Source: a virus. Taken from it: a stretch of 23,625 bases of DNA. The position numbers were made by a program, and so were the translations under genes. Each line of letters starts with the position of its first letter. The stretch's first letter is position 1. Under the pieces are notes generated by a model. That model ran no database searches. It saw only the letters and a list, made by a program, of their open reading frames with translations, and had not been told where the DNA came from. The DNA lies in the IMG/VR virus record IMGVR_UViG_3300031857_001417, positions 1-23,625 of that record. One strand, written 5' to 3'. This document shows positions 3,897-18,792 of this stretch, in pieces.

Positions 3897-4784
3897 TCAG
3901 TCGATCTGGAGCGGCGGGAGGAAGTCGAGAGCCGACGCCTCTCCCGCGATCCGCCTGTCGATGTAGTGATCGAGGGTTGTCTTTGAATCCTTGTGCGTCA
4001 GAAATTCCGTGGCATCCCCTCCCCCGGCTTTGACGTAGCTGCCGGCCGCCTTACGGATTGCATGAAAGCCCCTCGGCTCCACGCCCGCCTGACGGCAGAT
4101 GTATTGAACACGCTGGAAGATCGACCCAGCCTTGCGGTAGTCCAGCCACGGCCACACACGCTCGCCTGGAGCCCGCCTGCCCTTCTCCAGCCACTCGGCT
4201 AGCTGGGGCGTGATCTGGCGTGTAATCGTCCGCCCGAGCCCCTTGCGGTGCTCTGATAGGAACGTGATGGTGCGGCGGCGGGAATCGACCTGACTCCATC
4301 GCACTTCGAGGTGGCTGCCGATACGTTCCCCGGTGTAGTAGTTCGCCATGAACAGCGTGGGCCAGAACCACGCCGCCTGCACGGGGCCGATCATGCCGCT
4401 ACGCCTGCGGGCCTCACGAACCATGCGGCTAATCTCCTCCACGGTGTAGGCCGATGGGGCGTGGTGCGGCACCTTCACGATTCCACGCGGGAGATCGGGG
4501 AAGTTCTCGACCATCCGCTTGCGGGCGGCTGCGTTCCACAAGCTGACGAGGTGGGCCATGTCCTTCCTGACGGTCGCGGCGGTGACGATCATGCCGCGAT
4601 GCGGCGTGACGGCTCGCCAGCGGAGGTATTTCGCTACCTGGAGATCGTCAAAATCGGACAGTTCCGGCTCGCGTCCAAGAAAGTCGCGGAAGCGGTCGAT
4701 GGTCTGGGAAAACAGCGTGACGCTGCGGGGCTTCAGGTTGTGCAATACTGCGTATCGGTCGTTCAAAAACTCTCGAATAGTCAT
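3897..4784 (-). CDS. int: Tyrosine recombinase, phage integrase
   Basis: This 295-residue protein carries the full catalytic set of the tyrosine recombinase family: R154 (TGERIG), K181 (EHRKG), H241 and R244 (FHAIRK), H264 (LTHKD) and nucleophile Y274 (LDHYID). The N-terminal 100 residues are the SAM-like core-binding domain. The start at 4784 is set by AGGAGG ten bases upstream on the minus strand. The open frame continues upstream to 5249, but that part reads through the control region and the divergent gene. It would catalyse site-specific integration and excision. It is convergent with the late genes and divergent from a small DNA-binding protein, the usual int/xis layout. Confidence 0.93.
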   Translation of the reverse strand: MTIREFLNDRYAVLHNLKPRSVTLFSQTIDRFRDFLGREPELSDFDDLQVAKYLRWRAVTPHRGMIVTAATVRKDMAHLVSLWNAAARKRMVENFPDLPRGIVKVPHHAPSAYTVEEISRMVREARRRSGMIGPVQAAWFWPTLFMANYYTGERIGSHLEVRWSQVDSRRRTITFLSEHRKGLGRTITRQITPQLAEWLEKGRRAPGERVWPWLDYRKAGSIFQRVQYICRQAGVEPRGFHAIRKAAGSYVKAGGGDATEFLTHKDSKTTLDHYIDRRIAGEASALDFLPPLQID

Positions 4785-4819
4785 CGCGATGATCCCTCCT
4801 TCATGCGGCTGGCATGCGT

Positions 4820-4850
4820 GTAGTATACAAAACTTCACGCCCCATGCCCT
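4820..4850 (-). promoter_or_regulatory. Weak candidate integrase promoter
   Basis: On the minus strand a TATACT hexamer (complement of 4822-4827) lies about 38 bases upstream of the integrase ATG, at a suitable distance for a -10 box and a short leader. No good -35 is seen at 16-18 bases, only AGGGCA-like sequence. It may need an activator. Confidence 0.25.
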
Positions 4851-4893
4851 CCGCTGCTTGTTCTGTTCAGTAGATGCTATGGCGAGGCCGGAA

Positions 4894-4924
4894 GCGGAGG
4901 CAAAGGTCTTTGTTTTGCCGCCGC
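4894..4924. repeat. Imperfect inverted repeat in the int control region
   Basis: GCGGAGGCAAA (4894-4904) and TTTGCCGCCGC (4914-4924) are inverted repeats with one mismatch in 11. Between them is a nested CAAAG-GT-CTTTG dyad (4901-4912). The spacer is locally T-rich in an otherwise GC-rich area. Its place between the integrase and the divergent regulator makes it a candidate attP core or protein-binding site. It could also be a regulatory hairpin. Confidence 0.35.
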
Positions 4925-4987
4925 CATGCCCCGCCTGGAACGTGCGTCTACTGGCGGAAATGCTGTTTTTCCCGCGTCTGGCTCGAT

Positions 4988-5015
4988 TTGATTCGCACAG
5001 ATGTGACGATACGAT
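4988..5015 (+). promoter_or_regulatory. Promoter A with shared operator-like element
   Basis: TTGATT (4988-4993), 16 bases, then TACGAT (5010-5015) form a sigma70-like promoter 17 bases before the ATG of the divergent regulator gene. The spacer contains GCACAGATGTGACGATA. Aligned without gaps from 4991, 19 of 25 bases match promoter B (from 5421). This suggests control by the same repressor, possibly autoregulation. Confidence 0.6.
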
Positions 5016-5031
5016 TGAGGGGATGATCGCA

Positions 5032-5361
5032 ATGGCAGACATACGCTCGCTGACGAAGGACTTCATGACCGTCCGTGAGGTCATGGGCCGCATTGCCGCC
5101 CGCGCCCACAGCACGGTGCTGCGGCTGATCCGCATCGAGGGCGACCCGAAAACGTCTGGCAGGCCGCTCCAGGGCATCAACGTGCCTGGGCACGGCTGGT
5201 TCATCCTGCGGAAGAGCGTGGATGACTTCTGTGCCGTCCAGGCAGCCAAAGCCCCCGGCGTCGGGTTCCCCAGGGGGCGGCCCAGGAAGGCAGAGTCGGG
5301 CCAGCCTGTGGTGAAAAAGGCGGCGAAAAAGACCGCCGCCAGGAAGAAAAAGCCCCACTAA
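5032..5361 (+). CDS. Xis/regulator-like DNA-binding protein with AT-hook
   Basis: This 109-residue protein starts at ATG 5032, nine bases after GAGGGG. An in-frame ATG at 5023 abuts that site and is less likely. Residues 8-66 have the look of a winged-helix excisionase fold (MTVREVMGRIAAR, then a GHGWFILRKSVDDF wing). Residues 80-86 are PRGRPRK, a canonical AT-hook. The tail (95-107) is a Lys/Ala-rich stretch like histone H1 tails. It is divergent from the integrase and has its own promoter and terminator. The most likely roles are recombination directionality factor or early regulator. The two cannot be told apart from sequence. Confidence 0.7.
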   Translation: MADIRSLTKDFMTVREVMGRIAARAHSTVLRLIRIEGDPKTSGRPLQGINVPGHGWFILRKSVDDFCAVQAAKAPGVGFPRGRPRKAESGQPVVKKAAKKTAARKKKPH

Positions 5362-8622: not shown

Positions 8623-8790
8623 GAGACAGACCGGCACGCGGTTGTCGCAGCGGCTGCATCGGGCCGCATCCGCAGGTGAGCACAGAGAGCCTTGAAAGTC
8701 CTGTGCAGTCGAGGCCGGTTCATACCTCCCTGGCTGGTGACTCGACCGGGTGCCGCACGTTACGCGGCCGAAACACAAGGACGTGAAGAG

Positions 8791-9612
8791 ATGACCAAAG
8801 CAAAAACCTTCGCCGACATTGCCCCGCACTACCTCGCCGAGCGAGTGGTGTCTGCCGTCTACGCCGCGAACGTCAAGCGAGTCGCCGGCAAGATCGGCAC
8901 CGTGTCGGTGGAGCGGCTGAACAAGTACATCATGCAGCGAGCCGAGCAGGTGAGCGGCATCACTGCCCGGTCAGAGCGGACGATTGCTCTGTGCATGTGG
9001 CGGTGGGCCTATGACCGTGGGTTGCTCGACATCGCCCCGCGTGGCGTGCTCAAGATGAAGGCGAGGAAGCGGCCTACGAAGGCATGGACGATCCCGCAGC
9101 TACAGGCACTGGTCAAGGCTACGCGCCAGTACGACGGCAAGTGGATGCGGTCGCAGGCTGACTTGGGCCAGTTCCTTCGGGCGTGGGTCTTGCTCGCCTA
9201 CGAAACCGGCGCGAGGTTCGGCGACGTGATGGCGTTCCGGGCCGAGCACCTGGACGGCGACACGATTTCGTGGACGCAGAGCAAAACCGGCGACCCGATG
9301 GTGCGGTCGCTCACGCCGGCCTGCCTTGACGCCTGTGACGCCATGCTCAAGCGGTCGCCCGACACGACCATCGTCGGATGGGCATGCGGCAAACGCGAAG
9401 CCATGCGACTCATGCGGAAGCTCCTCGACTCGCAAGGTCTGGGCGGCTCTAGCAAGTGGCTGAGGCGCAGCGGAGCGACTCACTGCGAGATGGCCCAGCC
9501 CGGAGCCGGCCGTCTTCACCTTGGGCATCGGTCGCCTGCTTTGTTCGAGTCTGCCTACGCAGATTTTTCGCAGCTAAGAACGAAGACGCCGAAGACGCCG
9601 CCGCTTGTCTGA
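8791..9612 (+). CDS. Second tyrosine recombinase, His-to-Lys variant
   Basis: This 273-residue protein has the box I pattern ETGARFGDV (R142), QSKTG (K165), KWLRRSGAT (R225), LGH (H246) and SAYADF (Y256). The H246-Y256 spacing of ten equals that in the integrase, so Y256 is the likely nucleophile. The usual His of the H-x-x-R box is Lys (K222). ATG 8791 with GAAGAG upstream is preferred to the in-frame start at 8692. It lies in the replication module, away from the integrase, so resolution of dimers or replication intermediates, or a second integration system, are all possible. The 168 bases before it hold no convincing gene. Confidence 0.8.
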   Translation: MTKAKTFADIAPHYLAERVVSAVYAANVKRVAGKIGTVSVERLNKYIMQRAEQVSGITARSERTIALCMWRWAYDRGLLDIAPRGVLKMKARKRPTKAWTIPQLQALVKATRQYDGKWMRSQADLGQFLRAWVLLAYETGARFGDVMAFRAEHLDGDTISWTQSKTGDPMVRSLTPACLDACDAMLKRSPDTTIVGWACGKREAMRLMRKLLDSQGLGGSSKWLRRSGATHCEMAQPGAGRLHLGHRSPALFESAYADFSQLRTKTPKTPPLV

Positions 9613-10026: not shown

Positions 10027-10291
10027 TAACGAACAACTGTTTTCTGACGAAGACATGCGTCGTCGGTACGAGACGGCGTATGAGTTTCTTGCGAACGACG
10101 GCGCGCAGTGCGGGCTTTCAAAGGATTACATGCTCAGCGCTCTGCATCACATTGGCGAAGCCCTACATACGAACACGCAGAGCGAAAGCCTGTGGAAGGC
10201 ATATGTGCTAATCGACGTGCTTGTTGATCGGTGGGATGAGTGCGTGTCCGTGTTCACCGAAGAGGAGATCGTCCGTGACTGCGACTGCTAG
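10013..10291 (+). CDS. Small acidic helical protein, unknown function
   Basis: This 92-residue protein starts at ATG 10013 with AGGAGA upstream. It overlaps the preceding stop and shares its last 17 bases with the next gene. It is acidic and helical (DEDMRRRYETAYEFLAND, DYMLSALHHIGEALH, EEEIVRDCDC). The high acid content could point to a DNA mimic or a protein-binding adaptor, but nothing specific is visible. I recognise no family. Confidence 0.55.
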   Translation: MATTDNEQLFSDEDMRRRYETAYEFLANDGAQCGLSKDYMLSALHHIGEALHTNTQSESLWKAYVLIDVLVDRWDECVSVFTEEEIVRDCDC

Positions 10292-11696
10292 CCTTTTGAA
10301 GTCCCACCCGGCCGCCGATGCGTGGCCGATGATGGATGACGAGCGGTTCAGAGAACTGCTTGCCGATATCCAAGCCAACGGGCAACGCGAGCCGATCACG
10401 CTATGCGACGGCATGATCCTTGATGGTCGCAACCGCTACCGCGTATGCGTCGAGCTGGGCGTCGATCCGGTGACGCGGCAGTACGATGGCGACCCGTGGG
10501 CGTTTGCGTGGTCTCTGAACGGTGCGCGGCGCGACTTGGAGGCGACGGTTCGCGCGTTGATCTTCAAGAGGTGCGAGGACGGATCTGCGAAGTGGGCGAA
10601 GAGGCTGGCGAAGATTGCGGAGGATGGGAACCGCAAGAAGTCAGAGGCGATGTCAGGGCTTCCTCGCGCCGAGAAAGGCGGAAAAAGGAAGCCAGATGTC
10701 GCTGATCACGATGACCAGCAACATCGAAAGTCTGGCGGGCGTGCCGTTGCCCGCGAATACCGCGCCGCTGAGGCGAAGGTTTCGCCTTCCACGATGGCCC
10801 GAGCCGACCAGATCGCCAAGCGGCCGGACCTCGAACAGAAGGTCGTGGCTGGCGAGATGAAGCCAGCCGAGGCTCTCCGCGAAATTCGCTCAGAGAAACG
10901 CCGCAAGCAGTTGGCGGAGGCGGCCGAACTGGCTGCGTGCCAGCACGAAGCCGACAGGCCGGAGCCGGTGATCCTGAACAAAGACGTGATCGACGGCCTG
11001 GAGACCATCCGCGACGAGCACGGCCCGGCCCGGCTGATCTTCACAGACCCGCCCTACAACATTGGCATCGACTACGGTGACGGCGAAGAGGCCGATCTGC
11101 TCTCGCCGCAGGCGTATATGAAGTGGGTGCGGAATTGGCTCGCTCTCTGCTGGGACTGCCTGACAGACGATGGCTCGCTCTGGGTGATGATCGGAGACGA
11201 GTACGCGGCAGAATACTGCACTGAACTCAAGGCCACCGGGTTCACGATCCGCTCTTGGGTCAAGTGGTACGAGACCTTCGGGGTGAACTGCTCGAACAAG
11301 TTCAATCGCACCAGCCGCCACATCTTCTATGCGGTCAAGAATGAGAAGTCGTTCGTATTCAATCCTGAGCCGGTGACGAGGCCCAGCGACCGGCAGACGA
11401 AGTACGGCGACAGCCGCGCGTCTGCCGGTGGAAAACTCTGGGATGACGTTTGGCAGATTCCGCGACTGACAGGCACGTGCGCCGAGCGGATTCCTGACTT
11501 CCCGACGCAACTTCCGCTGGCGTTGGTTGAGCCAATCGTCCTGTGCTCGTCGATGCCTGGCGATCTGGTTGTTGACCCGTTCAACGGCAGCGGCACGACC
11601 GGAGTCGCTTCCGTCCGAAACGGAAGGAAGTACGTCGGCATTGAGAAGAGCGAGAAATTTGCTGGCATGGCTGAAATGCGACTGAGGGGAACATGA
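10275..11696 (+). CDS. ParB-like nuclease domain fused to DNA methyltransferase
   Basis: The GTG at 10275 with GAGGAG seven bases upstream gives 473 residues. Residues 10-80 are a ParB/Srx-type N-terminal domain (ELLADIQANGQREPITLCDGMILDGRNRYRV, read as two parts). A long basic helical linker follows. The C-terminal half is an amino-methyltransferase with the catalytic TDPPYN motif (D258) before the SAM-binding DPFNGSGTT motif (D434), the beta-class order. It would methylate exocyclic amines of adenine or cytosine in DNA. Similar fusions are known in phages, usually as orphan modification enzymes that protect phage DNA. The target sequence is not predictable. The next gene overlaps by four bases. 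Confidence 0.9.
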   Translation: MTATASLLKSHPAADAWPMMDDERFRELLADIQANGQREPITLCDGMILDGRNRYRVCVELGVDPVTRQYDGDPWAFAWSLNGARRDLEATVRALIFKRCEDGSAKWAKRLAKIAEDGNRKKSEAMSGLPRAEKGGKRKPDVADHDDQQHRKSGGRAVAREYRAAEAKVSPSTMARADQIAKRPDLEQKVVAGEMKPAEALREIRSEKRRKQLAEAAELAACQHEADRPEPVILNKDVIDGLETIRDEHGPARLIFTDPPYNIGIDYGDGEEADLLSPQAYMKWVRNWLALCWDCLTDDGSLWVMIGDEYAAEYCTELKATGFTIRSWVKWYETFGVNCSNKFNRTSRHIFYAVKNEKSFVFNPEPVTRPSDRQTKYGDSRASAGGKLWDDVWQIPRLTGTCAERIPDFPTQLPLALVEPIVLCSSMPGDLVVDPFNGSGTTGVASVRNGRKYVGIEKSEKFAGMAEMRLRGT

Positions 11697-12173: not shown

Positions 12174-13922
<1,749 letters not shown>

Positions 13923-13925
13923 CCA

Positions 13926-14549
13926 ATGAACGACAAGGACAAAAGGCAGCACCGGAAGGCCGAACTGCGTGGCCGCTGGCGGGCTCTTTTCGAGGACGGG
14001 TCGATAGCCCAGCTTCGGAGCGAGGGGCGGCTAGTCGCCATGTACGTCTTTCTAGTTGCCAACTGGGAAACCTGCCAACTCCGCATCCCGCTGCGACGGG
14101 CGGCGAGGTTCATGCGTGTGTACCCAAATACAGTTCGGCGTGGGATTCAGCAGCTTGTCGAAGCCAAGGTGATCGAGTGCCTGGGCAAGCAGGGCGAGTC
14201 GGGAAGGCTGGCCTACCGAGTGCTGGGGGGGTCACCACTCGTGACCACCCCGGTCACCACTCGTGACCCCCAGCGCACACCACTCGTGACCGCCCCGGTC
14301 ACGGCTCGTGTACAGAGCGCACACCACTCGTGTGCGCAGGGGTCACCACTCGTGACCGGCGCGCACACAGGCGGTGACCACATTTCAGTTTCTTTCAGTG
14401 GTTCTTCAGTCAGTACCAGTGAAAGAAACAGTACGGCTGACGCCGGGGCCGGTGTGGGACCGGCCCGGCGTCGCCGTAAGCGGTGGGAACACGGACTCGC
14501 CACTGCTGAGGCACCTACTGAGCCGCAGGAGGCAAAGGCAGATGCTTGA
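13926..14549 (+). CDS. Winged-helix replication initiator (O-like), carries iterons
   Basis: This 207-residue protein begins 3 bases after the primase-helicase stop. Residues 30-95 form a winged-helix domain (RLVAMYVFLVANWETCQLRI, ARFMRVYPNTVRRGIQQLVEAKVIE, then a wing at SGRLAYRVL). Residues 100-160 are low-complexity (PLVTTPVTTRD and similar) because seven DNA repeats run through this part of the gene. The end is basic (PARRRRKRWEHGL) then acidic. The arrangement mirrors lambda gene O, in which the initiator gene contains its own origin. The assignment as initiator is inference from fold, repeats and the adjoining helicase gene. Confidence 0.75.
   Translation: MNDKDKRQHRKAELRGRWRALFEDGSIAQLRSEGRLVAMYVFLVANWETCQLRIPLRRAARFMRVYPNTVRRGIQQLVEAKVIECLGKQGESGRLAYRVLGGSPLVTTPVTTRDPQRTPLVTAPVTARVQSAHHSCAQGSPLVTGAHTGGDHISVSFSGSSVSTSERNSTADAGAGVGPARRRRKRWEHGLATAEAPTEPQEAKADA
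14230..14379 (+). repeat. Seven-iteron array, candidate replication origin
   Basis: Seven 17-bp units begin at 14230, 14252, 14275, 14297, 14319, 14341 and 14363, a spacing of 22 bp (once 23). The type unit is GGTCACCACTCGTGACC, a palindrome with 6-bp arms. Units 1, 2 and 6 are identical. Units 3, 5 and 7 replace one or both arms with GCACAC or GTGTGC, and unit 4 is diverged (GGTCACGGCTCGTGTAC). A 22-bp period places all sites on one face of the helix. Since 22 is not a multiple of three, the repeats run in changing codon frames, so selection is on DNA rather than protein. Confidence 0.85.
14388..14429 (+). other. A/T-richer stem-loop beside the iterons, candidate unwinding element
   Basis: GTTTCTTTCAGTGG (14388-14401) and CCAGTGAAAGAAAC (14416-14429) are inverted repeats with a single mismatch and a 14-nt loop. 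The surrounding 14380-14432 is less GC-rich than its surroundings and contains repeated TTCAGT words. Its place directly after the iterons fits a DNA-unwinding element or a primase-loading hairpin. Confidence 0.55.
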
Positions 14550-14634: not shown

Positions 14635-14898
14635 ATGACCGCGACCGAAACCGAATCCCCACCTCCGACTGCCCGCCAACTGGAAATCCTCCGGTGGGTC
14701 GCCGGCTTCATCTCCGACAAGGGCTTCCCGCCGACTCGCCGCGACATCTGCCGTGGTTTTGAGTTCGCCTCGCCGAACGCGGCCCAGATTTACATGACGC
14801 AACTCAAGCGGCGCGGGCTCGTCACCTACACGGAGCGGGCGAGCCGCACGCTGCGACTGACGCCTGCCGGCATGGAACTGATCGGAGGTGGTGCATGA
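14635..14898 (+). CDS. LexA-type DNA-binding domain without peptidase
   Basis: The 87-residue product matches the LexA N-terminal winged helix: PTARQLEILRWVAGFISDKG, PPTRRDICRGF, SPNAAQIYMTQLKRRGLVTY and ASRTLRLTP. The S24 self-cleavage domain is absent, so it cannot be inactivated by RecA in the usual way. ATG 14635 has AGGAGG eight bases upstream. A second in-frame ATG at 14542, also with AGGAGG nine bases upstream and overlapping the previous stop, would add 31 residues. Either or both may be used. It probably represses phage or host promoters or competes with host LexA. Confidence 0.75.
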   Translation: MTATETESPPPTARQLEILRWVAGFISDKGFPPTRRDICRGFEFASPNAAQIYMTQLKRRGLVTYTERASRTLRLTPAGMELIGGGA

Positions 14899-15128: not shown

Positions 15129-15403
15129 CGCTCAGTGACTTCGTGCTGATCGCAATCGGTGAACTTCTCCTGGCGGCGACGTTCGCCCTCGGGATTTGTG
15201 TCGGTGTTTCCCTGTCGAAGAGAAAGGAATCTCACAATGACGACGGCAACAGCTACGAGGCGGCGCAAGGCAAGTGGCATCACGCTGGACCGGGCAACCC
15301 TGTTCAGTGCACTGGAGGCGGTCGGTGCGGCCGTTCCGGCACGATCACCAAAGCCGATCCTGTCGAGCGTTTTGCTCAAGGACGGGATGATCTGCGGAAG
15401 TGA
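15125..15403 (+). CDS. Small membrane protein overlapping the clamp gene
   Basis: The ATG at 15125 overlaps the previous stop. The first 40 residues form one clear membrane segment (DFVLIAIGELLLAATFALGI and CVGVSL) ending in Lys/Arg. The frame then runs 167 bases into the clamp gene in another frame and codes for a Gly/Cys-rich tail. The N-terminal part looks like a normal phage membrane protein. The long tail looks like out-of-frame clamp sequence, so the gene may have lost its original stop. Expression is plausible, tail function doubtful. Confidence 0.5.
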   Translation: MTLSDFVLIAIGELLLAATFALGICVGVSLSKRKESHNDDGNSYEAAQGKWHHAGPGNPVQCTGGGRCGRSGTITKADPVERFAQGRDDLRK

Positions 15404-16373
15404 CCTCGAAATCCAAGTGCAGACCGAGTGCGAGTGGACCGACGATCCGGTCGTGCTGCCCTACGCTCGGCTGCGGTCGATCCTCAAGGAGTCAGCCGGC
15501 GACGAAGTGACGCTGTCAGTGGACGGGGCCGCATGTACGGTGAAGGTCGGGCGTGGCGAGTGGCGTCTGCCGGTGGAGGATGCTGCCGAGTTCCCGACGT
15601 GGGAGCCTGCGGACTTGAAGCCGGTCTGTCGCATCCCCTGCGACCAGTTCGCTCGGGCGATTCGCAGCGTGGTCTATGCCCACGATGACGAGAGCAGCCG
15701 CTATGCCCTCGGGGCGGTGCTGATCGAGGTGCGTGGCAGCGTGTGCAGCGTGGTAGCTACGGACGGCCGGCGGCTGGCGTGTGCCACCATCGAGCACGAT
15801 CAGGCGGTTGATGACATCGACGTGCTGCTGCCGGCTCGGGCGGCTGCCTACATCGGCCGCTTCGCTGGCGAGAAGGGCAATGCCGAGAGTGCGGTGCAGT
15901 TGGAGGCGACGCGGAATGAGTGCGTTGCCACCATCGGCGGCACGACCGTCACGGCTCGGCTGCTTGACGGTCGGTTCCCCAGGTGGCGCGACGTGTTCCC
16001 TGAGCGGCCGGATGCCCAGGTGCACACGATTGCCATCGACGCACTCTGGCACGCGACCAGGGCAGCGGCGATTGTCACGACTGAGCAGTCGAAGGGCGTT
16101 GACTACGCCTTCACTGAGTCGGGCCTGACGCTGTCGGGTCGGTCTGCGGAGAGCGGCGAGAGCACGGTTGTCTGCGAGGTGGCTGAGTCTGGTTCGCCTT
16201 GCGTGGTCAAGCTCGACCCGTGGTTCGTAGATCAGATGTGCAAGGCGTTGCTCACGCTGGAAGGCGAGCCGCATGTGCGGGTTTCGGTCGCCGGCAAGGG
16301 CGATGCCGTGATCTTCACCTACGGCGAGGATGACGAGTACCGCAGCGTCATCATGCCGCTGGCCCACGACTGA
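15237..16373 (+). CDS. dnaN: DNA polymerase III sliding clamp (beta subunit)
   Basis: This 378-residue protein matches the bacterial beta clamp through all three domains, close to the usual length of about 370. Visible blocks are PKPILSSVLLKDG and ICGSDLEIQVQ in domain 1, AEFPTWEP, RYALGAVLIE and VVATDGRRLACA in domain 2, LLDGRFPRWRDVFPE in domain 3, and the terminal YRSVIMPL strand. ATG 15237 has AGAAAGGA eight bases upstream. An in-frame start at 15159 would only add translated upstream sequence. It forms a ring that tethers polymerase. No phage polymerase is in this window, so it may recruit the host enzyme. A strong terminator follows. Confidence 0.92.
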   Translation: MTTATATRRRKASGITLDRATLFSALEAVGAAVPARSPKPILSSVLLKDGMICGSDLEIQVQTECEWTDDPVVLPYARLRSILKESAGDEVTLSVDGAACTVKVGRGEWRLPVEDAAEFPTWEPADLKPVCRIPCDQFARAIRSVVYAHDDESSRYALGAVLIEVRGSVCSVVATDGRRLACATIEHDQAVDDIDVLLPARAAAYIGRFAGEKGNAESAVQLEATRNECVATIGGTTVTARLLDGRFPRWRDVFPERPDAQVHTIAIDALWHATRAAAIVTTEQSKGVDYAFTESGLTLSGRSAESGESTVVCEVAESGSPCVVKLDPWFVDQMCKALLTLEGEPHVRVSVAGKGDAVIFTYGEDDEYRSVIMPLAHD

Positions 16374-16848: not shown

Positions 16849-17157
16849 ATGCGTTTTGCTTTGCTGCTTCTGGCGTTCCTGACTGCTTCTGTGGCTGCTG
16901 CCGACACGAACGTGTACGCACGCCGTGTGGTGGTGAACACTTCGGCCCAGGCGGATGCCGAACTGATGGCGAGGACCGGCGTGCTCAAGCACTGTGGCCG
17001 TTCCGGTGGACGCAGGGAGGGAATCGGGTTCAGCACGGCTAGCCCAAGCGCCGCGCTGAAGTCCTGTTGTTTCTTTGGCCGCTATCGGATCGCCGAGTCG
17101 GCTGTCGTGTGGTCGCCGATTCGCCGTGGCTGGTTCGCCGTGATTCGCTACGAGTGA
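16849..17157 (+). CDS. Secreted small protein of planctomycete type
   Basis: This 102-residue protein starts at ATG 16849 with AAGGAGA upstream. Residues 1-18 (MRFALLLLAFLTASVAAA) are a classic cleavable signal peptide with an AXA-like site before DTN. The mature part has GVLKHCGRSG, EGIGFSTASPSAALKSCCFFG and a final GWFAVIRYE. I know this GIGFS/GVGFS - CC(Y/F)(W/F)G - aromatic-RY pattern from small exported proteins of planctomycetes. The three Cys may form disulfides. It is probably host-derived cargo. Function is unknown. Strong hairpins lie on both sides of its two-gene unit. Confidence 0.7.
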   Translation: MRFALLLLAFLTASVAAADTNVYARRVVVNTSAQADAELMARTGVLKHCGRSGGRREGIGFSTASPSAALKSCCFFGRYRIAESAVVWSPIRRGWFAVIRYE

Positions 17158-17169
17158 GTGTGGGTGTCG

Positions 17170-17204
17170 CGCGGGGCGGTGGTGCGCTCCACCGCCCCGC
17201 GTTT
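17170..17204 (+). terminator. Strong intrinsic terminator-like hairpin
   Basis: CGCGGGGCGGTGG (17170-17182) and CCACCGCCCCGCG (17189-17201) form a perfect 13-bp stem around the loop TGCGCT, followed by TTT. It begins 12 bases after the stop of the secreted-protein gene and ends 15 bases before the RusA start, separating the two units. Confidence 0.8.
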
Positions 17205-17219
17205 GACACGCTAGCCACC

Positions 17220-17636
17220 ATGCCAGCCATGAAAGCGATTTCATTCGAGGTGTCGGGCGACCCCGTGCCGCAGCCCAGGCCACGGATCACAACGCGAGGC
17301 CGGCACGGTCACGCCTACACGCCGAGCGATCACCCGATCCATGCGTACCGGGCGGCGATTGCGGAGGCTGCGAGAGAAGCCGGCGCGGTGCCAACCGACA
17401 CGGCACCGATCACGCTGATTGTCGATCTCGTCTGGACGCGGCCGAAGTCGCACTACCGCAAGAGCGGGCTACGCGAGGATGCCCCGAGGCTCCCGCGTGC
17501 CGACTGCTCGAACTGCCTCAAGGGAATCGAGGATGCCTTGAACGGCGTGGCCTGGGTGGATGACACCCAGGTAGGAAAGGTGATCGTGGAAAAGAGCTAC
17601 GGCACGGAGGCACGGACTACCGTGCGGATTTCATGA
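17220..17636 (+). CDS. rusA: RusA-type Holliday junction resolvase
   Basis: This 138-residue protein has the RusA hallmarks: GDPVPQPRPR near the N-terminus and ADCSNCLKGIEDALNG followed by VAWVDDTQV. By alignment to E. coli RusA, D95 corresponds to D70, N98 to N73, K101 to K76 and D115 to D91, but the position of D72 is Ser (S97). RusA dimers cut four-way junctions and help finish recombination and packaging. The DxSN form is, to my memory, seen in other phage members, so activity is likely. ATG 17220 lacks a clear ribosome-binding site. ATG 17229 is an alternative. It opens a long coupled late operon. Confidence 0.85.
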   Translation: MPAMKAISFEVSGDPVPQPRPRITTRGRHGHAYTPSDHPIHAYRAAIAEAAREAGAVPTDTAPITLIVDLVWTRPKSHYRKSGLREDAPRLPRADCSNCLKGIEDALNGVAWVDDTQVGKVIVEKSYGTEARTTVRIS

Positions 17637-18160
17637 CATACCAAGAATACCTTGCCAGCGTTGACGATTCGCACCAGATGACCACGTCGCGAGATCACAT
17701 CGCACTGCTGTGCGAGATCGTCGCTGGCAGGGAGGATGCCCGACTGCTTGAGCTAGGAAGCCACGCTGGCCTCTCGACTGCGGCCCTGGCGATTGCCGCT
17801 CCTGAGTCAACGGTCGTGAGCGTCGATCTGTGCGACACGATCTGCGAGGCGGATCGCGTCGCGTACTGGTCGCTGCTTGGCATCGACAACATTCAGCCGG
17901 TCGAGGATGACGCGGGCCGGTTCCTGCGGCAGTGTCAGTTGGGGCTGGAGCCGTGGGATTTCATCTTCCATGACGCGGCCCACGGAGATGCCGTGCTGCC
18001 TGAGTACCTGACGGCGGCCGGCATGTGCGATGTGCTGGCGATCCACGATTGGGAGCAGCTCTCGGAATCGTCGCAGATCGCTGTGCGGTCGCGGTTCAAG
18101 GTCGTGATCGAGTCGCACCGTGATTCGCGTGGCCGGCAGATGTTCGTGGGGATGAAGTGA
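17633..18160 (+). CDS. Class I SAM-dependent methyltransferase
   Basis: This 175-residue protein is coupled by ATGA to rusA. It has the SAM-binding LLELGSHAGLSTAALA (motif I, residues 38-53), VVSVDL (acidic end of strand 2) and DFIFHDAAHGD (strand 4). The layout fits the Methyltransf_24 type, which often methylates sugars or small O-groups. No DNA-methyltransferase catalytic motif (DPPY or PCQ) is present. Together with two glycosyltransferases downstream it suggests glycan modification. The substrate is not known. Confidence 0.8.
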   Translation: MTYQEYLASVDDSHQMTTSRDHIALLCEIVAGREDARLLELGSHAGLSTAALAIAAPESTVVSVDLCDTICEADRVAYWSLLGIDNIQPVEDDAGRFLRQCQLGLEPWDFIFHDAAHGDAVLPEYLTAAGMCDVLAIHDWEQLSESSQIAVRSRFKVVIESHRDSRGRQMFVGMK

Positions 18161-18792
18161 AGACGCTCGTTCTCACCGGCTTCGACGGCGACGAGTACGC
18201 ACGCATGGCGTCGTACACGATGCCGCTCATGCAGGCGTACGCCGAGCGGCACGGGCATGGCTTCCGCGTGATGAGGCTGGCAGGCGAGCGACCGCCGTCG
18301 TGGATGAAGCTGCCAGCCCTGGTCGATGCGTTGTGCGAGTACGACCGCGTCGTGTGGATCGACATCGACGTTGTGATCGTGTCGCCGTGGCAGGACATCG
18401 TCGCCGCGATGGAGCCGGATTCGTGGCAGGCCGTGGTGGAACATCGCACCGAGTGCGGGCACGTCCCGAACTGCGGCGTGTGGGTGGTGACGAAGGAGAT
18501 GCGATACGAGCTTTCATTAGCGTGGGGCGAAGGCACCGACTACCTGCATCACCCGTGGTGGGAGCAGGCGGCGATCATGCGACTGATGGGCTACGCGGTG
18601 GATGACGGGCCACGCGGCCGGCTTGACACACCTACCACGCTTTATGAGCGGACCACGTTTCTCGGGCCGGAATGGAACCACCATCCGGCAGACCGAAACA
18701 AAACGAACGCCCCGAACTTTGTGCATGTGACGCAATATGCCGACCGACTTGGCACGATCCGCGATCTTGCCGCCCGCGCCGCCCGCTCCTGA
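18157..18792 (+). CDS. GT-A glycosyltransferase, GT34-like
   Basis: The GTG at 18157 overlaps the methyltransferase stop (GTGA), giving 211 residues. WIDIDVVI (D69, D71) is the DXD metal and nucleotide-sugar site, PNCGVWVVTKE is the acceptor-side NxG block, and HHPWWEQAAI with the later WNHHPADRN and FVHVTQ blocks agree with galactosyl/mannosyltransferase families of the GMA12/MNN10 (GT34) kind. The start MKTLVLTGFDGDEY fits a Rossmann-like N-terminal strand. It transfers a sugar from a nucleotide donor. The acceptor could be the virion, a host glycan or DNA. Confidence 0.75.
   Translation: MKTLVLTGFDGDEYARMASYTMPLMQAYAERHGHGFRVMRLAGERPPSWMKLPALVDALCEYDRVVWIDIDVVIVSPWQDIVAAMEPDSWQAVVEHRTECGHVPNCGVWVVTKEMRYELSLAWGEGTDYLHHPWWEQAAIMRLMGYAVDDGPRGRLDTPTTLYERTTFLGPEWNHHPADRNKTNAPNFVHVTQYADRLGTIRDLAARAARS

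What the first reader, a model, noticed from the sequence alone, without database searches (positions are those of the whole stretch)
14230..14379. Seven face-phased iterons inside an initiator-like gene: probable phage origin
Seven copies of a 17-bp palindromic unit recur every 22 bp (one step is 23). The period is two helical turns and is not a multiple of three, so the codon frame shifts from repeat to repeat and the encoded peptide is low-complexity. This indicates selection at the DNA level. The host gene encodes a winged-helix protein next to a primase-helicase. The plan is that of lambda gene O and its ori, but the repeat sequence and the protein appear unrelated to lambda. Arms alternate between GGTCAC and GCACAC types, so two half-site flavours are mixed in one array.
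Basis: partly seen in the sequence, partly recalled or inferred. Interest (0 to 1): 0.88.

Follow-up and report, generated by a model that had tools for sequence, protein, structure and literature searches.

The report
Phage replication origin inside initiator gene
An uncultured bacterial virus carries, inside the gene for a DNA-binding protein, a ladder of seven binding sites followed by two DNA palindromes, which is very probably where it starts copying its genome; the layout is that of phage lambda but is built from an unrelated protein, and relatives show protein and sites changing together.

Summary
Observation confirmed: seven 17-bp units at 14230-14379, steps 22,23,22,22,22,22. Every sufficiently complete relative examined keeps an array at this gene (about 38 distinct loci; one irregular, one cut to two units). 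Each unit is a pair of half-sites GNNCAC-N5-GTGNNC, so half-sites recur every 11 bp in alternating orientation. The CAC/GTG core is 99.7% conserved at third codon positions, against 54.5% in the winged-helix region. The arms do not covary within a phage, so these are protein-binding sites rather than hairpins. Recognition-helix residue 71 tracks half-site base 2: G occurs in 18 of 19 R71 phages and 0 of 8 others, and later loci agree. The 'mixed flavours' follow partly from avoiding in-frame TGA. Beyond the finding lie two palindromes, 14388-14429 and 14439-14472, with compensatory changes at 20 of 24 pairs. In two remote relatives the initiator stops before the array, yet array and palindrome persist. 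Best reading: a lambda-like, in-gene iteron origin with an unrelated winged-helix initiator and a primase-helicase. No function was tested; GC skew shows no turn here.

The parts
12174..13922 (+). Primase-helicase: RepB_primase/AEP-like N-terminal domain fused to a DnaB-like helicase domain
   Evidence: Pfam DnaB_C 1.7e-21, RepB_primase 5.2e-8; PHROG DnaB-like helicase 1.2e-26; PDB matches to DnaB and to a PrimPol AEP domain
13926..14549 (+). Initiator-like gene (207 aa); the array and both palindromes lie inside it
   Evidence: ORF; conserved directly after the helicase in relatives
13926..14240 (+). Encodes the N-terminal winged-helix domain; recognition helix residues 67-79; R71 is codon 14136-14138
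   Evidence: AlphaFold2 on a 28-row alignment, pLDDT 84, H67-79 then two strands; R71/base-2 association
14230..14246 (.). Iteron 1, GGTCAC-CACTC-GTGACC
14252..14268 (.). Iteron 2, GGTCAC-CACTC-GTGACC
14275..14291 (.). Iteron 3, GCACAC-CACTC-GTGACC (after the 23-bp step)
14297..14313 (.). Iteron 4, GGTCAC-GGCTC-GTGTAC
14319..14335 (.). Iteron 5, GCACAC-CACTC-GTGTGC; the only unit in the codon phase where GTGACC would create an in-frame TGA
14341..14357 (.). Iteron 6, GGTCAC-CACTC-GTGACC
14363..14379 (.). Iteron 7, GCACAC-AGGCG-GTGACC
14388..14429 (.). Palindrome 1: long A+T-richer inverted repeat, candidate unwinding/structured element
   Evidence: 18-nt arms 89% complementary; compensatory changes across relatives; DNA fold -13.1 kcal/mol, z -7.6; the stretch after the array is 49% AT against 31% in the array
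14439..14472 (.). Palindrome 2: G+C-rich inverted repeat
   Evidence: helix 3, 86% of cells paired, 6 of 8 pairs with two-sided changes; DNA fold -19.1 kcal/mol, z -4.6

Best explanation
This is the phage's replication origin, laid inside the initiator gene as in lambda. Dimers of the 13926-14549 product bind the seven GNNCAC-N5-GTGNNC iterons through the winged helix. Half-sites lie 11 bp (about one turn) apart, so protein would stack on one face of the DNA. The resulting complex strains the A+T-richer segment with palindrome 1, and the neighbouring primase-helicase is loaded there and primes synthesis. Shown by computation: array geometry and conservation, DNA-level selection, association of helix residue 71 with half-site base 2, and compensatory evolution of both palindromes. 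Inferred: dimer binding, unwinding, helicase loading, priming, and origin activity itself.
For: Array next to the same two genes in relatives. 22-bp steps 120 of 142; core CAC and GTG both exact in 156 of 167 units. Core conserved 99.7% at codon position 3, against 54.5% in the winged-helix region. Iteron type follows the recognition helix beyond the rest of the domain (partial Mantel r 0.50, p 0.0005); R71 with G at base 2 in 18/19, non-R71 in 0/8, with 3-4 changes on the helicase tree, 2 forced by well-supported branches. Later loci fit: 9 R71 arrays all with G, two K71 arrays with GTTCC, no G. In L100 and L109 the initiator ORF ends before three iterons at exact 22-bp steps, followed by a perfect 18- or 14-bp inverted repeat. 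Two palindromes with 20 of 24 pairs compensated. Same order as the annotated lambda ori: iterons, A+T-rich stretch, inverted repeat, all in O. The array is the only long chain of such sites in each of four longer CAC-type contigs.
Against: No binding or replication assay. Cumulative GC skew has no turn at the array in the window or in five longer contigs, though co-oriented genes may mask it. Residue 71 was chosen after seeing the data, and the phages are related. The A+T-richer stretch is only about 49% AT. The fold match to solved initiators is weak (Z at most 8).
Confidence: 0.85

Rival explanations
1. The array is an operator: the winged-helix protein binds it to repress or time transcription of its own operon, and the origin lies elsewhere.
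For: The fold is shared with many transcription regulators; binding fits the R71/base-2 association equally well. GC skew gives no origin signal.
Against: No promoter-like or terminator-like site near the array (sigma-70 consensus only). Seven tandem sites plus two compensated palindromes next to a primase-helicase exceed what an operator needs. The array sits mid-gene or just after the gene, not upstream.
Confidence: 0.09
2. The repeats act as folded RNA or single-stranded DNA hairpins (mRNA control, or the units themselves as priming hairpins).
For: Several units are perfect palindromes; the two downstream palindromes do covary.
Against: Arm positions within a unit match less often than under within-phage shuffling (0.46 against 0.53). 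G-T mismatches on the coding strand are rarer than A-C (18 against 51); for the downstream palindromes G-T and A-C are about equal, so there is no sign of RNA. Single units fold weakly (z -1.4 to -1.7). No Rfam family near its gathering score.
Confidence: 0.03
3. The repeats are conserved for the peptide they encode.
For: All arrays of the main group end in the same codon phase, so the peptides look alike.
Against: Core bases are as conserved at third codon positions as at first and second. Units are read in three frames, and in L100/L109 the array lies outside the ORF.
Confidence: 0.02

Closest known systems
Phage lambda O gene and ori (Phage_rep_O, PF04492)
   Same: Iterons inside the initiator gene at about 20-24 bp, then an A+T-rich stretch, then an inverted repeat, same polarity; PMC7466680 describes the origin in the middle of O with iterons and an AT-rich tract.
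   Different: No sequence relation found; seven iterons against four; CAC-N5-GTG core; the partner is a primase-helicase upstream rather than protein P downstream; the inverted repeats differ.
RepA_N plasmid initiators (pSK41)
   Same: N-terminal winged helix binds Rep boxes lying centrally in rep; the ori-encoded protein part is a linker (PMC5703833). Entries 4pql, 4pt7 and 5kbj, which I take from memory to be RepA_N initiator domains, rank among the best structural matches (Z 7.0-8.0).
   Different: No RepA_N profile match for the window protein; Z is within the range of chance for winged helices; phage with its own primase-helicase.
IncQ plasmid RSF1010 (RepB' primase, ssiA/ssiB)
   Same: RepB_primase-type primase beside iterons and hairpin-forming DNA; RepB' binds single-strand hairpin sites (PMC4434180).
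   Different: Primase is fused to a DnaB-type helicase; initiator not matched to any IncQ initiator; palindromes not shown to be priming sites; origin lies in the initiator gene.

Membership tests
Lambda O family (Phage_rep_O, PF04492) | Sequence match to the O N-terminal domain | tested here: not met
   Window protein: no PF04492 at E up to 0.1 or 1; hhalign to lambda O probability 0.3%; lambda O itself matches at 5.7e-36
Lambda-type origin (plan, not homology) | Iterons inside the initiator gene followed by A+T-rich DNA and an inverted repeat | tested here: met
Lambda-type origin (plan, not homology) | Initiator binds the iterons and replication starts there | not testable with these tools
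   Only indirect support: residue 71/base 2 association
RepA_N initiators | RepA_N (PF06970) domain | tested here: inconclusive
   Not found for the window protein, but only 25 of 50 families matched by alignment members were listed; structural Z 7.0-8.0 is not decisive
IncQ (RSF1010) replication system | RepB'-type primase | tested here: met
   RepB_primase 5.2e-8, 33.4 bits against a cut-off of 24.3
IncQ (RSF1010) replication system | Single-strand initiation hairpins used by the primase, one per strand | not testable with these tools
   Two covarying palindromes exist but use as priming sites is unknown
HTH_36 (PF13730) domains | Profile match above cut-off | tested here: inconclusive
   14 of 28 relatives match, best 5.2e-6; window member only HTH_29 at 0.003, below its cut-off

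The most novel reading that the evidence does not exclude
A hybrid origin: lambda's plan (iterons inside the initiator gene) served by an IncQ-like RepB'-type primase fused to a DnaB helicase, which recognises the two conserved palindromes as strand-specific priming hairpins, so that initiation needs no host helicase or primase.
Probability: 0.25. Interest if true: 0.65.

Novelty: new variant of a known kind. Interest (0 to 1): 0.5.

Why it matters
It appears to be a lambda-like origin reached with an unrelated initiator, in a phage group with no close relative among the 50,697 named phage records searched. The family gives a natural set of matched initiators and iterons, and a one-residue, one-base specificity rule that can be tested directly. 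It also shows how a DNA element survives inside a reading frame: half-site choice is limited where TGA would fall in frame, and two remote relatives carry the array just outside the gene.

Tried and rejected
Hairpin reading of the iterons: no arm covariation. RNA reading: no G-U excess; the only Rfam match is MIR8622 at 29 bits against a cut-off of 197. GC-skew turn at the array: none. Host: one distant match to the primase part in a Planctomycetota MAG (L060), in which no winged-helix relative was found; 392 genomes of that phylum gave only weak winged-helix matches (best E 1.2e-6, L075, whose locus has no CAC-N5-GTG site). Host therefore unknown. No DNA match in named phages, only distant helicase matches, none for the initiator. 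Alignment A1 was too diverse for a collection scan. The exact-palindrome scan of viral contigs gave four contigs only, at least three of them members of this family. The VIA-align list shows generic winged helices, so no family was assigned from it. Homology with lambda O: none found. Literature searches found no description of this family, within an open-licence library only.

Full report
WHAT IS THERE. The window is a 23,625-bp IMG/VR virus record. Positions 14230-14379 hold seven 17-bp units with steps 22,23,22,22,22,22. The longest chain of CAC-N5-GTG at 21-24 bp in 300 mononucleotide shuffles of the window was two; here it is seven. Four units are perfect 6-bp palindromes and three are mixed. 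Each is better described as GNNCAC-N5-GTGNNC. Because the spacers between units are also about 5 bp, half-sites recur every 11 bp in alternating orientation.

SETTING. The array lies in a 207-aa ORF (13926-14549) whose first 105 residues are predicted as a winged helix (pLDDT 84). The preceding gene is a RepB_primase/AEP plus DnaB_C fusion. A LexA-type DNA-binding domain protein (14635-14898) and a DnaN-like clamp (15237-16373) follow.

RELATIVES. A scan with the helicase gave 53 viral loci. In the relatives whose locus is complete enough, a homologous winged-helix ORF follows and holds an array at the same place. In 25 phages and 167 units, the bases AC and GT of the core were invariant, CAC and GTG were both exact in 156, and 120 of 142 steps were 22 bp. 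Unit centres were curated by hand on the 22-bp lattice, so a small part of this conservation is by construction. The 23-bp step falls between units 2 and 3 in most seven-unit arrays. A clade (L008, L010, L014) has GTTCCC-type instead of CAC-type half-sites; L008 and L010 keep the geometry and L014 is irregular. A second scan from a divergent member added nine further arrays of five to seven units.

DNA-LEVEL SELECTION. Core bases are conserved 97.5, 98.8 and 99.7% at codon positions 1, 2 and 3, while third positions in the winged-helix region average 54.5% majority identity. In two remote homologues, L100 (hhalign probability 98.9% to the family) and L109, the initiator ORF stops just before three iterons at exact 22-bp steps, followed by a perfect inverted repeat. 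The array thus persists without being coding.

WHY TWO FLAVOURS. GTGACC contains TGA. When a unit's right half starts in codon phase 2, that TGA would be in frame. GTGACC occurs in 24 of 131 right halves in phases 0 and 1 and in 0 of 36 in phase 2, while its mirror GGTCAC, which has no such problem, occurs in all phases. The zero is what an open frame requires; the point is that it dictates which half-site can be used. In the window the only phase-2 unit is iteron 5, which uses GTGTGC. This explains part of the mixture; the GCACAC left halves of units 3 and 7 are not explained by it. In L100 the three non-coding repeats are identical; in L109 the spacers vary.

NOT HAIRPINS. Arms of a unit do not covary: inner matches 0.46 against 0.53 in within-phage shuffles; outer 0.48 against 0.51. 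The units are therefore better read as protein sites.

PROTEIN AND SITES CHANGE TOGETHER. Distances between iteron profiles follow distances in the recognition helix after allowing for the rest of the domain (partial Mantel r 0.50, p 0.0005). Residue 71 stands out: with R71, G occurs at half-site base 2 in 18 of 19 phages; with Q, M, I, H or S it occurs in 0 of 8. The helicase tree needs 3-4 changes of this label, at least two of them forced by strong branches. The residue was chosen after the fact. Loci fetched later agree: nine R71 arrays all contain G at base 2, and the two K71 arrays have GTTCC with T there. These later R71 loci form one related group, so they are few independent tests.

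PALINDROMES. Beyond the finding's coordinates, 14388-14429 and 14439-14472 are inverted repeats. Across 28 phages, 85% of cells pair and 20 of 24 pairs have two-sided changes (shuffled mean 12.8, none of 500 as high; slid controls 9-14). G-T and A-C mismatches are about equal, so nothing points to RNA rather than DNA. The 70 nt after the array are 49% AT in the window and 40-61% in relatives, against 23-41% in the arrays.

MECHANISM. Most likely the initiator binds the iterons, strains the A+T-richer palindromic stretch, and the primase-helicase is loaded and primes there. Binding is supported by co-variation; unwinding, loading and priming are inferred from the gene neighbours and from lambda.

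COMPARISON. The annotated lambda O gene has iterons starting at 39034, 39054, 39078 and 39101, then A+T-rich DNA, then a 12-bp-arm inverted repeat. The plan is the same, but sequence comparison finds no relation. RepA_N plasmids also carry their origin centrally in rep (PMC5703833). RSF1010's RepB' primase acts at hairpin sites (PMC4434180), which makes a priming role for the palindromes worth testing. This is filed as a new variant of in-gene iteron origins, not as a member of any of these families.

LIMITS. No experiment; host unknown; contigs probably incomplete; GC skew gives no origin signal; relatives are not independent. Library searches cover open-licence papers only.

Noticed in passing
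L092:3700-3900: Close relative of L091 whose array is cut to about two units; the downstream reading frame differs. Natural deletion or assembly collapse of repeats.
   Followed up: partly
L100:2858-3354 and L109:2001-2487: Remote homologues whose initiator stops just before three iterons and an inverted repeat rich in CCATGG.
   Followed up: yes
window 14383-14440 and the same place in relatives: Besides the palindrome, CAGT/CAAT-like words recur roughly every 10-13 bp in the stretch after the array.
   Followed up: no
window 3897-5249 (-) and 8692-9612 (+): Two tyrosine-recombinase-like genes on opposite strands (Phage_integrase 3.6e-7; PHROG integrase 3.1e-22).
   Followed up: no
window 15237-16373: Phage-encoded DnaN-like sliding clamp next to a lone LexA-type DNA-binding domain (14635-14898).
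   Followed up: no
window 10221-11696: Adenine methyltransferase with CcrM similarity and a weak ParB-like N-terminal match.
   Followed up: no
window 17067-18792: RusA-like resolvase followed by a methyltransferase-like and a glycosyltransferase-like gene (the last two weak).
   Followed up: no
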